64,000 bases of DNA, from assembly GCA_963921795.1 (NCBI GenBank), contig OY997649.1, positions 64,673,030 to 64,737,029 of the forward strand, written 5' to 3'. Shown here in pieces: positions 4,001 to 63,793 of the stretch. Each line of letters opens with the position of its first letter. The first letter of the stretch is position 1. The notes under the pieces were generated by a model. It ran no database searches and had not been told where the DNA came from. It saw only the letters and a list, made by a program, of their open reading frames with translations. The stretch comes from Nannobrachium achirus. Taxonomy: Eukaryota; Chordata; Actinopteri; Myctophiformes; Myctophidae. The position numbers were made by a program, and so were the translations under genes.

Positions 4001-7000
4001 TGTGAGCGTTGAAAGGAGGGGCCTGTGAGCGTTGAAGGGAGGGGCCTGTGAGCGCTGAAAGGAGGGGCCTGTGAGCGTTGAAGGGAGGGGCCTGTGAGCG
4101 TTGAAAGGAGGGGCCTGTGAGCGTTGAAGGGAGGGGCCTGTGAGCGTTGAAAGGAGGGGCCTGTGAGCGTTGAAAGGAGGGGCCTGTGAGCGTTGAGAGG
4201 AGGGGCCTGTGAGCGTTGAAAGGAGGGGCCTGTGAGCGTTGAAAGGAGGGGCCTGTGAGCGCTGAAAGGAGGGGCCTGTGAGCGCTGAAAGGAGGGGCCT
4301 GTGAGCGTTGAAAGGAGGGGCCTGTGAGCGCTGAAAGGAGGGGCCTGTGAGCGTTGAAAGGAGGGGCCTGTGAGCGTTGAAAGGAGGGGCCTGTGAGCGC
4401 TGAAAGGAGGGGCCTGTGAGCGTTGATCAGTACCTGAGATGCAGATGAAGCCCGAGGCGTAGAAGGCCTCGTTGTAGGAGGCCACCGACGCCACCTCGGC
4501 GTACGCCGTGTAGACGGAGAGGTGGGAGCAGGCACACTCCACGAAACTACCACCGTCATCCACCACTCTGCAGTACCTGCTGTCTGATAACCAGCTGGGG
4601 GGGGGGAGGGGTAGGAGGGGGGGAGGGGAGGGGGGTTTAATAATATCAGAAGGAAAGACAACAGAGGATAAAGAGAAGGACGGACAAAAAAAGAAGAGAC
4701 AAAAACAGGATGAGACACGACTCCCAACGGTGATCCAGGTTACATGGAGAGAAACGTCACCGTTATGAGGCTTAAGAGAGTATTGTACTTTTTTTTTTGT
4801 TTTGTTTTTAACTTTACTTCCACTTCACTCCATCTGAGAAAATAATATATTGTACGTTGTAAACCACTACAATTATTTGAAAACATTAGTTACCGGGAAA
4901 GCGTCTGTATGCAAGCATCTACACAACAATTAGACAAACTAAGTCTTCAAATAATTGTAGTGGAATAAAAGTAGGCCTACAATATTTGTAAAAGAATGCA
5001 AATTGGGACATTTGTACAAAAAAATTTTTGGACACACATCTTATTTGATTTTGGGTCATGAACAATTACCTCCAGAACAGATATACAATCAGTGTGATAT
5101 CATTTATGTACAGTACAAGACCAGTTGAAACACTTCTAAACCCATTTATCAGTTCATGTATTTTTCATACGTTACGACGCTTTGGCTTTGCAGGACAGTG
5201 CTGTGTTCTACCTGTCACGCGGGCAACGCTGTATGCTGTGAAGATTTTTTTTTTTTTTAAAGCGTATGCCCTCGTGAGCCTTTCAAAGTAGCGTATCTGA
5301 CAGGCATTGTGCACTGGCGTATGCGCTGGCCACACGAAGAGCCACGCATCATAGAGTATAGTATGCCCTCAAAACAAGTCTACAAACAGTACACTTCTGC
5401 TTTGGCAATGTAAATGTACATGTTTTCTCATGCCAATAAAGCCCTTCGAATTCGTAGCTCAGCTCTCCTCACCTCAAAGTTACATTAAACCATATGGTAT
5501 TACATTATCAGGCAATTTATGATTAAACTTATACTCTGCCTATATCTATACTCTATACCAGTGGTTCTCAACCTTTTCAGGCAGGGACCCCCCAAATAAC
5601 ATATTTCAACTGGGGACCCCCCCACCCTGACGAGCACTAAGAGTTGAGGCATTACATTTTGCACAACACAGTTCTATTGTGAAAATAGCAGATCTACATG
5701 CTCACAACGCCTCGCGATGTGAGGCGTTGTGAGCATGACGATCGGCTATTTTCACGATTTCTGCCTCTAACATTTGACAATTTGTCCAATGATTAATTTG
5801 TCATTTTAGAGGTATTAAAAAGTCCATAAATTGTCACTTTAGAAATGTGAAGATACCCTCTATACTCTTATACTGTATGTTGGTTTGTTTACAGTTGAGT
5901 GAGAAAACAATGTTTCTTAAGCTAATCATCCGGGGACCCCCCCCAAAATAATTTGGCAACCCCTGGGGGTCCTGACCCACAGGTTGAGAACCACTGCTCC
6001 ATACCACTGGACAGTACAGTACTGTACGCAAGTAGTTACTTTCCACCAGTGCACGCATTCATCATCCCCTCCCGTCTGCCGTCAAACTCCCCAAGCAGCC
6101 GTTTCTGTTTGTGTCCAGAAAGCATCAAACTGCCAAGGTTTTGTTCCATAACAGGCTGTTCTGTTCCTGCTAAGATCAGGCTGTTCCTCTGGACCTGTGG
6201 AATGTCCTCCTCCTCCTCCTCCACAAGGCAGACCGGATCCGTGGGGCGGGAGGATCCAACCCGCTCAGCACGCAGCAGAACAAACGCACGTGCCAACGGC
6301 GGTTTTATTAAACAGGAAGTCATCTTGACTTCACCCCACGGTCCCCACAGAGAGGCCGCGAGGTCACAGCGGGCTGAACCTTTTAGAACCTCGGGGGAAC
6401 CTCGGGGGATCTTTCAAGGTCTACGGACCTGGTCCTTTTTCTTCTGGTCCCACAAACAAGGCCGAAGACCAGGGGAGACGGATCATTTTCCGCTGTAGTG
6501 CCGGTGGAACGAACTTCCACTCTTATTTTATATGTTTACTGAGTGTACAGCACTTTGGTTCAACGCTGTAAAACGTGCTCTGTAAGTAAAGTGGACTGGA
6601 TTGGATTTAAAAGTCTTTAAAAAATCTGCTCCTTGCGATCATTTGGTCAGTTCAAAGCAATGGTCCTCAACACTTTTTAACTGTGATTGCACCTGTTTTA
6701 TAATTCATTAATTGTGCTTTAGCTGACTTGTTTCAGGTACTGTTTTAGTTATTTTATTTAGTAATTGCACTCTGATTCACATTCCTTGTCAATCTGTAAT
6801 GGATTTGGAATGTGTCAATTATTGTTAACCTCGGCTACACTTTGAGAACCACTGGCCTTTAGGGAGTAGAATCTAGTGTTGTTGAGAGCAACGTTGAGAG
6901 CCTGTACACCGTGGACTGTAGGTGTGTTATTTCCACTAGTCCAAAAAAAGAAAAAAAAACCTAAACAAAAACAAAATCAATGCAGATGTTGGACTTCAGA

Positions 7001-63429: not shown

Positions 63430-63793
63430 GGAGCAGGGGGTACAAGGATTCACTGCTTTATTAACCTATGTTTCTATGTCAGTGGTGCTCAAACCTTTTC
63501 ATGTCAAGGACCCCCAAAATGATATGTATTTGGCCACGGACCCCCATCTCAAAATATTTAGTTCCAGGGACCCCCCAGAAGCTACATTTGAGTTGCAAAT
63601 ATTCGCTTAAAAAAATAAGATTTGCACACGTTTTCATGACTAAAAGAAAAACAAAAAACAAAAAAACAGATCTACAAGCTCGTAGTGCCGCGCTGTGAGC
63701 TTGTATATCTGCTATTTTTCAATAGTTAAAGTATAAAATAATGAAGGCCCCCCCCCCCCCTCCCCCCCCCCCCCCCCCGTGTGACGCCCCTGG
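63430..63793. mobile_element. MITE of CAGGGGCGTCACA family, damaged left end
   Basis: Right end GTGTGACGCCCCTG with poly-C run 63749-63778. The interior CAAGGACCCCCAAAATGATA matches 54540-54580, and a palindrome lies at 63664-63717. The left end begins at a GGGGGTACAAGGATTCACTG joint. Confidence 0.55.

What the first reader, a model, noticed from the sequence alone, without database searches (positions are those of the whole stretch)
5681..63717. More than 30 copies of one palindromic hairpin embedded in at least five unrelated TIR element families
The arms (AAAATAGC, AGATCTACAAGCTCACAAC and their inverse) are conserved while the GC-rich centre varies but stays self-complementary (CTCGCGATGTGAG, CGTCACAACGTGACG, CGTCGCAGCGCGACG). 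Copies or half-copies occur near 5681, 10725, 11008, 11439, 13256, 14116, 16931, 28606, 28794, 29333, 29630, 35610, 36041, 37436, 37703, 39626, 40740, 41092, 41325, 47574, 50000, 50206, 51099, 53103, 54399, 54674, 55523, 57284, 58336, 60770, 61080, 62468 and 63664. Hosts include the CAGTGGTTCTCAA, GGGTCTTCAACA, CAGGGGCGTCACA, CAGTGTTGATTTCG, GTCGGGCAGAAACC and TAATCG families. A single hairpin shared by different transposons suggests a mobile foldback that targets other elements, a shared cis signal captured by several families, or compensatory maintenance of a structured RNA or DNA. I do not recognise it as a named repeat.
Basis: partly seen in the sequence, partly recalled or inferred. Interest (0 to 1): 0.9.

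Follow-up and report, generated by a model that had tools for sequence, protein, structure and literature searches.

The report
Palindrome shared by many transposon families
A 71-letter DNA palindrome, present in an estimated half a million copies in this vertebrate-like genome, sits inside several unrelated families of small jumping genes that spread it as a passenger, and its two halves seem to be copied onto each other.

Summary
A profile of the hairpin finds 33 loci in the window and 60 in an arbitrary 200 kb of the same 1.66 Gb genome, none in ten shuffles: roughly 5e5 copies. One exact 19-mer of the arm occurs 41,677 times. The unit is a near-palindrome, 71 bp in 24 of 50 paired copies, with sharp edges. 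It lies inside about ten families of small non-autonomous DNA transposons; several have 8-bp target duplications (hAT-like), one TA duplications, so they are not one family with diverged ends. In three families searched genome-wide it is the rule, and most listed copies without a full hairpin keep remnants. Private changes in F, K and G hairpins are matched in both arms; arm mismatches are partly resolved towards the partner base, and centres occur in both orientations. I read it as a palindromic module captured by several transposons, amplified by them, homogenised by arm-to-arm exchange and eroded by deletion. How it was captured is unresolved. Repbase and Dfam could not be searched.

The parts
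5682..5752 (.). 71-bp hairpin in family G element 5559-5996
   Evidence: TSD CTCTATAC/CTCCATAC (7 of 8)
10727..10797 (.). 71-bp hairpin, family E (TAATCG-rich flank)
11008..11078 (.). 71-bp hairpin, A arm + B-like arm
11441..11511 (.). 71-bp hairpin, family I arm + family C2 arm
13258..13314 (.). shortened hairpin, family H
14117..14144 (.). centre-deleted hairpin (arms only)
   Evidence: by eye; below profile threshold
16928..16966 (.). half hairpin, family G arm
28499..28757 (.). family F element flanked by TA/TA, with hairpin 28606-28676
28792..28832 (.). centre-deleted hairpin, family K type
29253..29472 (.). family F element flanked by TA/TA (right end four bases longer than usual), with hairpin 29335-29387
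   Evidence: by eye
29597..29792 (.). element with 8-bp TSD GTCTGGAT/GTCTAGAT (7 of 8) and centre-deleted hairpin 29631-29665
35503..35750 (.). family K element flanked by TA/TA, with hairpin 35608-35678
36043..36107 (.). hairpin, family C
37439..37479 (.). half hairpin, family E left arm joined to family A end
37702..37772 (.). 71-bp hairpin, A' + B arms
39416..39926 (.). family D element, 9-bp TSD with one mismatch, with hairpin 39626-39699
40740..40810 (.). 71-bp hairpin, diverged A-like host
41091..41154 (.). diverged hairpin of K type inside a CAGCGGTTCTCAAA-ended element
41325..41395 (.). 71-bp hairpin, family C left arm
47323..47878 (.). family D element with TSD GAACGAGG/GAATGAGG (7 of 8) and 71-bp hairpin 47577-47647
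50001..50031 (.). half hairpin, family B left arm
50206..50260 (.). shortened hairpin, A + B arms
51098..51154 (.). shortened hairpin, K type
53104..53155 (.). shortened hairpin, C2-type arm
   Evidence: 14.9 bits
54308..54329 (.). half hairpin of family K interrupted by the 54327-54845 insertion
54327..54845 (.). family B composite element, TSD TCTACAAG/TCTGCAAG (7 of 8), with hairpins at 54400-54435 and 54674-54744
55521..55547 (.). half hairpin, family H right arm
57282..57331 (.). centre-shortened hairpin, family H
58339..58400 (.). hairpin, family E
59934..60061 (+). family D copy lacking the hairpin
60771..60828 (.). shortened hairpin in family C element 60618-61065 (no target duplication seen)
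61081..61127 (.). partial hairpin next to family C end
62469..62496 (.). centre-deleted hairpin
   Evidence: by eye
63434..63792 (.). family B composite element with exact 8-bp TSD GAGAGGAG and hairpin 63661-63718
   Evidence: by eye

Best explanation
A discrete palindromic module of 71 bp (longer where lineage-specific outer stems are counted) was captured separately by several small non-autonomous DNA transposons served by different transposases, and was then copied as a passenger whenever those elements transposed. Shown: abundance; sharp edges; hosts of two target-duplication types; presence as the rule in three families; matched family-specific changes in both arms; biased resolution of arm mismatches; inverted centres; many different deletions of the palindrome. 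Inferred: that each capture happened once per family before amplification; that arm matching comes from copying inside the palindrome (cruciform or hairpin mismatch repair, gene conversion); that capture was by nested insertion or by template switching between stem-loops (undecided).
For: 60 loci in 200 kb of arbitrary sample, 33 in the window, 0 in shuffles. Conservation in the 25 arm positions is mostly 1.1-2.0 bits (0.77 at one), then 0.43 at the first flanking base and 0.22 at the next. 19 arm classes of two or more members among 148 arms. Exact 8-bp duplications CATGTATG, CTAGCAGT (B), GCCTAGTG, TTCTAGAC (C), GCTTGATC (D), GAGAGGAG (B); TA at 13 of the 18 best F/K ends. Family C: 1094 copies with gaps of 70-105, 172 with gaps of 0-45. 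Family F: 2475 copies, 96 of the 100 listed with a clear arm piece. In the A-B family only the B-side arm consensus carries GTATATC, so hairpin orientation is fixed there. Matched private changes: F 2, K 2, G 1. C left arm stem 8: A 52, C 15, T 2 of 69 alignable rows (31 of 100 rows dropped), while A-to-C elsewhere is at most 3 of 69. F stem 8: of 58 rows scored on both sides, C.T mismatch 41, C-G 6, A-T 5, T-A 1, swapped A.G 0, other 5. Centres: GCT 21 and AGC 14 of 45 in C; GAT 21 and ATC 7 of 34 in F.
Against: The A-B family has two asymmetric consensus differences, so arms are not always equalised. Two sample copies of an F subfamily (L014 8563, L023 6704) are in the swapped A.G state, so whole-hairpin inversion also occurs, and the small F sample puts the stem-8 difference on the other side than the 100-row list. 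Mixed stem-8 states and centres could be old subfamilies; no tree was made. 54 of 148 arms fall in no class. The capture event is not seen. Some hairpin-free copies exist (one clean F join; C joins AGAACTTTAGCCAAAGAGG; 2 of 16 short D copies without clear remnant; the D copy at 59934; L025:113-261) that could be pre-insertion sites; most of these junctions can also arise by slippage or deletion between short repeats at the stem base.
Confidence: 0.6

Rival explanations
1. The hairpin is itself a tiny palindromic MITE with TA target sites that inserted repeatedly into other transposons and elsewhere; high copy number comes from own movement plus hitchhiking.
For: Sharp edges. In families E, F and H the stem runs into TA on both sides. 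TA is over-represented at flank offset 4 (0.24 of 109 collapsed arms, background 0.08). One clean F join AAACTAGTTTAG equals the predicted empty TA site.
Against: Clean empty sites are rare: 1 of 100 listed F copies, and that join also equals slippage between ACTAG repeats. Only 7 of 50 paired hairpins have TA at the same offset on both sides, and other offsets reach 0.17 for TA. Family D has a longer stem without TA. Orientation is fixed within the A-B family, so its members are not independent insertions.
Confidence: 0.2
2. Hairpin tips are exchanged between elements by template switching at stem-loops during replication or gap repair, so the inner palindrome is shared and the outer stem stays with the host.
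For: Left and right flanks of one hairpin agree over the first 10 bases (0.498 identity; 0.342, sd 0.025, highest 0.428 for 500 shuffles of partners) and not beyond. Outer stems are host-specific: D, F, K, C, G (by reading). Single copies change family at the hairpin (A with C2, I with C2).
Against: E, F and H share the outer stem CACTA, which fits descent of a longer module as well.
Confidence: 0.2
3. The structure is under selection as an RNA or DNA hairpin (for example a precursor of small RNAs).
For: Length and stability resemble a pre-miRNA (the comparison is recalled); matched changes between families.
Against: No Rfam match in the window. Many centre and arm deletions persist. Resolution goes towards the partner base in both directions, as expected of conversion. 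Matched changes in F, K and G include transversions.
Confidence: 0.08
4. All hosts are one family with diverged ends.
For: Many ends look alike (CAGTGG..., CAGGGG...).
Against: Target duplications differ (8 bp against TA), F/K ends start differently, and the flanks fall into many unrelated classes outside the hairpin edge.
Confidence: 0.02

Closest known systems
MITEs of the hAT superfamily with internal inverted repeats (e.g. gadMor-hAT-1784 of Atlantic cod, PMC12368964; outline with abstract and sections 8 and 17 read)
   Same: Short, no ORF, classed as hAT-derived, inverted repeats inside, in a fish genome.
   Different: There the inverted repeats are about 600-bp TIRs of 167-169-bp tandem units in one family; here one 71-bp palindrome is shared by many families, including TA-type ones.
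Central domains shared by unrelated SINE families (CORE, V, Deu; recalled, only a search listing seen)
   Same: A conserved internal module shared by families whose ends and amplification partners differ.
   Different: Here the hosts are DNA transposons and the module is a palindrome with no known function.
Foldback elements such as Galileo (recalled; PMC4168063 seen only in a search listing)
   Same: Palindromic DNA with unstable arms.
   Different: In foldbacks the palindrome is made by long terminal repeats of the element; here it is an internal passenger.
Snap-back MITEs giving pre-miRNA-like hairpins (e.g. MADE1, recalled)
   Same: A near-perfect hairpin of about 70-80 bp in very many copies.
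   Different: That hairpin is the whole mariner-derived MITE; here it lies inside other elements.

Membership tests
hAT-type non-autonomous elements (families B, C, D, G) | 8-bp target-site duplication | tested here: met
   exact for B (L014, L020, window 63434-63792), C (L022, L023), D (L019); 7 of 8 for 5559-5996, 29597-29792, 47323-47878, 54327-54845; none seen for two L009 C elements and 60618-61065; one search scanned 35 hairpin loci and returned a candidate for 8, of which the two around the F copies (28761-29467, 29020-29580) were set aside
hAT-type non-autonomous elements (families B, C, D, G) | short TIR starting CAG/TAG | tested here: met
hAT-type non-autonomous elements (families B, C, D, G) | mobilised by a hAT transposase with matching ends | tested here: inconclusive
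   150 hAT domains scored of 1653 candidates; in the 6 loci read no host TIR pair encloses the domain. L034 has a hairpin on either side of its domain, but these look like G- and D-type neighbours and no enclosing TIR with an 8-bp duplication was found
TA-targeting MITEs (families F, K; Tc1/mariner-like) | TA duplication flanking a TIR | tested here: met
   TA at 13 of the 18 ends with at most 4 mismatches (counted from its rows); both sides by eye in window 28499-28757, 29253-29472, 35503-35750, L014 2070 and L023 6656; not in L017 2835
TA-targeting MITEs (families F, K; Tc1/mariner-like) | related autonomous element with Tc1/mariner transposase | not tested
   no search made
Self-mobile MITE (the hairpin alone) | own target duplication at the hairpin edge | tested here: inconclusive
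   TA at the same offset on both sides in 7 of 50 hairpins, 6 of them of types E, F or H
Self-mobile MITE (the hairpin alone) | clean empty sites common in host families | tested here: not met
   D: 14 of 16 short copies keep hairpin pieces by my reading, two of them weakly; C: first 65 listed of 172 short copies scored, 56 distinct breakpoint pairs, 47 keep 6 or more core bases; F: 1 clean join in 100 listed of 2475
Known structured RNA | Rfam match at gathering score | tested here: not met
   0 matches in the window
Named repeat in Repbase/Dfam | consensus match | not testable with these tools
   no such library; the 19-mer is absent from the held full texts

The most novel reading that the evidence does not exclude
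A palindromic 'core' that behaves as a parasite of DNA transposons: it moves between families served by different transposases, renews its symmetry by copying one arm onto the other, and has reached about half a million copies, so that new MITE families in this genome tend to be built around it.
Probability: 0.3. Interest if true: 0.82.

Novelty: new variant of a known kind. Interest (0 to 1): 0.62.

Why it matters
A shared internal module across unrelated DNA-transposon families would be the MITE counterpart of the central domains of SINEs. With more than a thousand copies in each of two families and fixed flanks, it gives a natural experiment on palindrome biology in a vertebrate-like genome: arm-to-arm conversion, inversion of the centre and deletion can be read directly. 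It also makes the birth of MITE families testable.

Tried and rejected
Exact search for a 19-mer of the arm in viral contigs: none. In prokaryote contigs: one hit in 257 Gb, near my chance estimate of about two, looked at only with the profile. Rfam: nothing in the window. Literature: seven searches; no description of a shared palindrome was seen in their listings; only PMC12368964 was opened (outline with abstract, sections 8 and 17). 'One family with diverged ends' rejected on target duplications. 'Ancestral empty sites' considered for D (59934-60061) and A'B (L025:113-261) and set aside, since both junctions can arise by deletion between short repeats and the short copies listed genome-wide mostly keep remnants; this does not prove deletion for these two. 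An autonomous hAT partner was looked for in six loci and not found. In one search the last step failed after the classes were printed. An A'B gap pattern did not complete.

Full report
WHAT IS THERE. A profile built from 23 window copies finds 33 loci at 12 bits or more in the 64-kb window, 60 in twenty arbitrary 10-kb stretches of the same genome (18 of the 20 stretches have one), and none in ten first-order shuffles of the window. Scaled to 1,658,514,493 bp this is about half a million loci; the sample lies at round coordinates on contigs 1-16, so the figure is rough. One exact 19-mer of the arm occurs 41,677 times genome-wide with 0 for the reversed control.

ANATOMY. Single arms were sought separately (148 kept) and 100 of them pair into 50 hairpins, 24 of which are exactly 71 bp; the range is 38-82. 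The 25 arm positions carry mostly 1.1-2.0 bits (0.77 at one); the first flanking base carries 0.43 and the next 0.22. The edge is therefore sharp at GCTATTTT. Beyond the edge the two flanks of the same hairpin still agree over ten bases (0.498 identity against 0.342, sd 0.025, for shuffled partners) and not further. So several families have their own short outer stem: CACTAGTTT in F, TGAT in K, TGGC(T)AAAG in C, CAGCACGCAAC in D, CACAAT in G (by reading); in A-B it is weak. Four window copies fold at -43 to -56 kcal/mol as RNA.

HOSTS. The flanks form 19 arm classes of two or more, holding 94 of 148 arms; 54 arms stand alone. Reading the classes in pairs gives about ten host families (A-B, C, D, E, F, K, G, H, I and a few more); this grouping rests on my reading and a motif scan. 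Families B, C, D and G have CAG-type ends and 8-bp duplications, several exact: CATGTATG, CTAGCAGT, GCCTAGTG, TTCTAGAC, GCTTGATC, GAGAGGAG. Two L009 C copies and 60618-61065 show none, and the blind scan gave a TIR plus duplication for only 8 of 35 hairpin loci, two of which I set aside. Families F and K share the end CGTTGCTGTCGGGCAGAAACC and sit between TA dinucleotides: 13 of 18 ends with at most four mismatches have TA there (counted from its rows), and five elements have it on both sides, one does not (by eye). The hosts are thus at least two kinds of transposon. Ends and duplications of E, H and I were not resolved.

IS THE HAIRPIN OPTIONAL? Genome-wide patterns of fixed flanks with a variable gap bear on this. 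Family D: 16 short-gap copies, 14 of which by my reading keep pieces of the hairpin, two weakly; the number of full D copies was not counted. Family C: 1094 copies with gaps of 70-105 and 172 with gaps of 0-45 (gaps of 46-69 were not counted); of the first 65 listed short ones there are 56 distinct breakpoint pairs, and 47 keep six or more bases of a core arm by a strict count, 18 do not. Family F: 2475 copies with gaps of 0-105; of the 100 listed (all on contig 1), 96 have a clear arm piece and one is a clean join. The clean joins in C and F equal the products of slippage between short repeats at the stem base, so they do not settle the matter. The hairpin was very likely in place before these families expanded, and copies without it are mostly later deletions, as expected of an unstable palindrome.

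HOW THE ARMS BEHAVE. Among 23 full-length copies, changes matched on both sides exceed shuffled expectation in the core (21 against 9.6) and in the nearest outer stem (30 against 12.2), while 62 core changes are one-sided; these counts include relatedness. Family consensuses show why: F has two private changes in both arms, K two, G one; A and B have one each on one side only; stem position 8 differs between arms in C, F and G (2 to 21 arms per side, unclassed arms opposite an A, B, F1 or K1 arm being given to the partner class). Within families, position 8 of the C left arm is A 52, C 15, T 2 of 69 alignable listed copies (31 of the 100 dropped), C being the base that pairs with the usual other arm, while A-to-C elsewhere never exceeds 3 of 69. 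In F, 58 of 100 listed copies could be scored on both sides: 41 have the C.T mismatch, 6 are C-G, 5 A-T, 1 T-A, none A.G, five differ otherwise. A flip of the whole hairpin would give A.G; that state is absent from the list but is seen in two sample copies of an F subfamily (L014 8563, L023 6704), and the small F sample has the difference on the other side. So both arm copying and inversion seem to occur. The central triplet also occurs as its reverse complement with flanks fixed: GCT 21 and AGC 14 of 45 scored in C, GAT 21 and ATC 7 of 34 in F. I infer exchange between arms inside the palindrome; old subfamilies remain possible because no tree was made.

MOSAICS AND NESTING. Single copies join arms of different families (A with C2 at L021 1523, I with C2 at 11441, E with an A end at 37438), and element 54327-54845 is inserted into the hairpin of a K copy, its target duplication coming from the hairpin arm itself. 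The B elements of 475-519 bp with both ends found carry two hairpins with A-type sequence between them (by reading). The palindrome is thus also a place where elements are joined.

MECHANISM. Best reading: capture of a pre-formed palindrome by several non-autonomous transposons, then spread as a passenger, arm homogenisation and deletion. Capture by nested insertion (TA at the stem end in E, F, H; TA excess at offset 4, though other offsets also reach 0.17) and capture by template switching between stem-loops (host-specific outer stems, mosaics) are both open. Selection for an RNA is not excluded but nothing here needs it. No autonomous partner was found in the six hAT loci read.

COMPARISON. 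It works like the central domains that unrelated SINE families share (recalled), moved to DNA transposons. It is not a foldback element by structure and the window has no Rfam match. The cod hAT MITE with inverted repeats (PMC12368964, sections 8 and 17) is a related kind of element with a different arrangement. Whether Repbase or Dfam holds these families, under separate names, could not be checked; the novelty grade is limited by that.

LIMITS. The genome search answered six requests. Listings show about the first 100 places, so within-family counts come from a few contigs.

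Noticed in passing
26582-27841 (+) and 25144-25743 (-): Open frames matching the KLHDC2-type kelch domain (E 3.8e-66) and a Calx-beta domain (E 7.3e-12): likely vertebrate genes or exons.
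   Followed up: partly
27721-28293 (-): Open frame whose text recalls the end of a fish LINE reverse transcriptase (recalled); no Pfam match at E 0.001.
   Followed up: no
2869-4426, 8570-9337, 18975-19716, 32263-35197, 55654-56751: Long minisatellite arrays with very regular units (23, 45, 21, 50 and 50 bp; up to 68 copies).
   Followed up: no
51577-52042: Interstitial telomere-like AGGGTT array; the window lies about 1.5 Mb from the end of contig 12.
   Followed up: no
23631-24183 and 30807-31050: Two long near-perfect inverted repeats (142 and 94 nt arms) apparently unrelated to this hairpin.
   Followed up: no
22846-22994: Cluster of short direct and inverted repeats with ACATAGGATAGTTACTGGGGTTA.
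   Followed up: no
L006:47-537: Weak arm-like matches, several about 52 bases apart, perhaps a satellite made from one hairpin arm.
   Followed up: no
L033:2441-2471: One exact 19-mer match in a Dormiibacterota MAG contig, near chance expectation.
   Followed up: partly
C1:53072294 and C3:10501230 (listings): Some family copies have rearranged or locally duplicated hairpin segments rather than simple deletions.
   Followed up: no
L034:156-214 and 2560-2632: A hairpin on each side of the best hAT-domain hit, with G- and D-like outer stems; no enclosing TIR with 8-bp duplication found.
   Followed up: partly
G000: 150 scored hAT dimerisation domains (1653 candidates), some in long open frames: some hAT transposases may still be intact.
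   Followed up: partly
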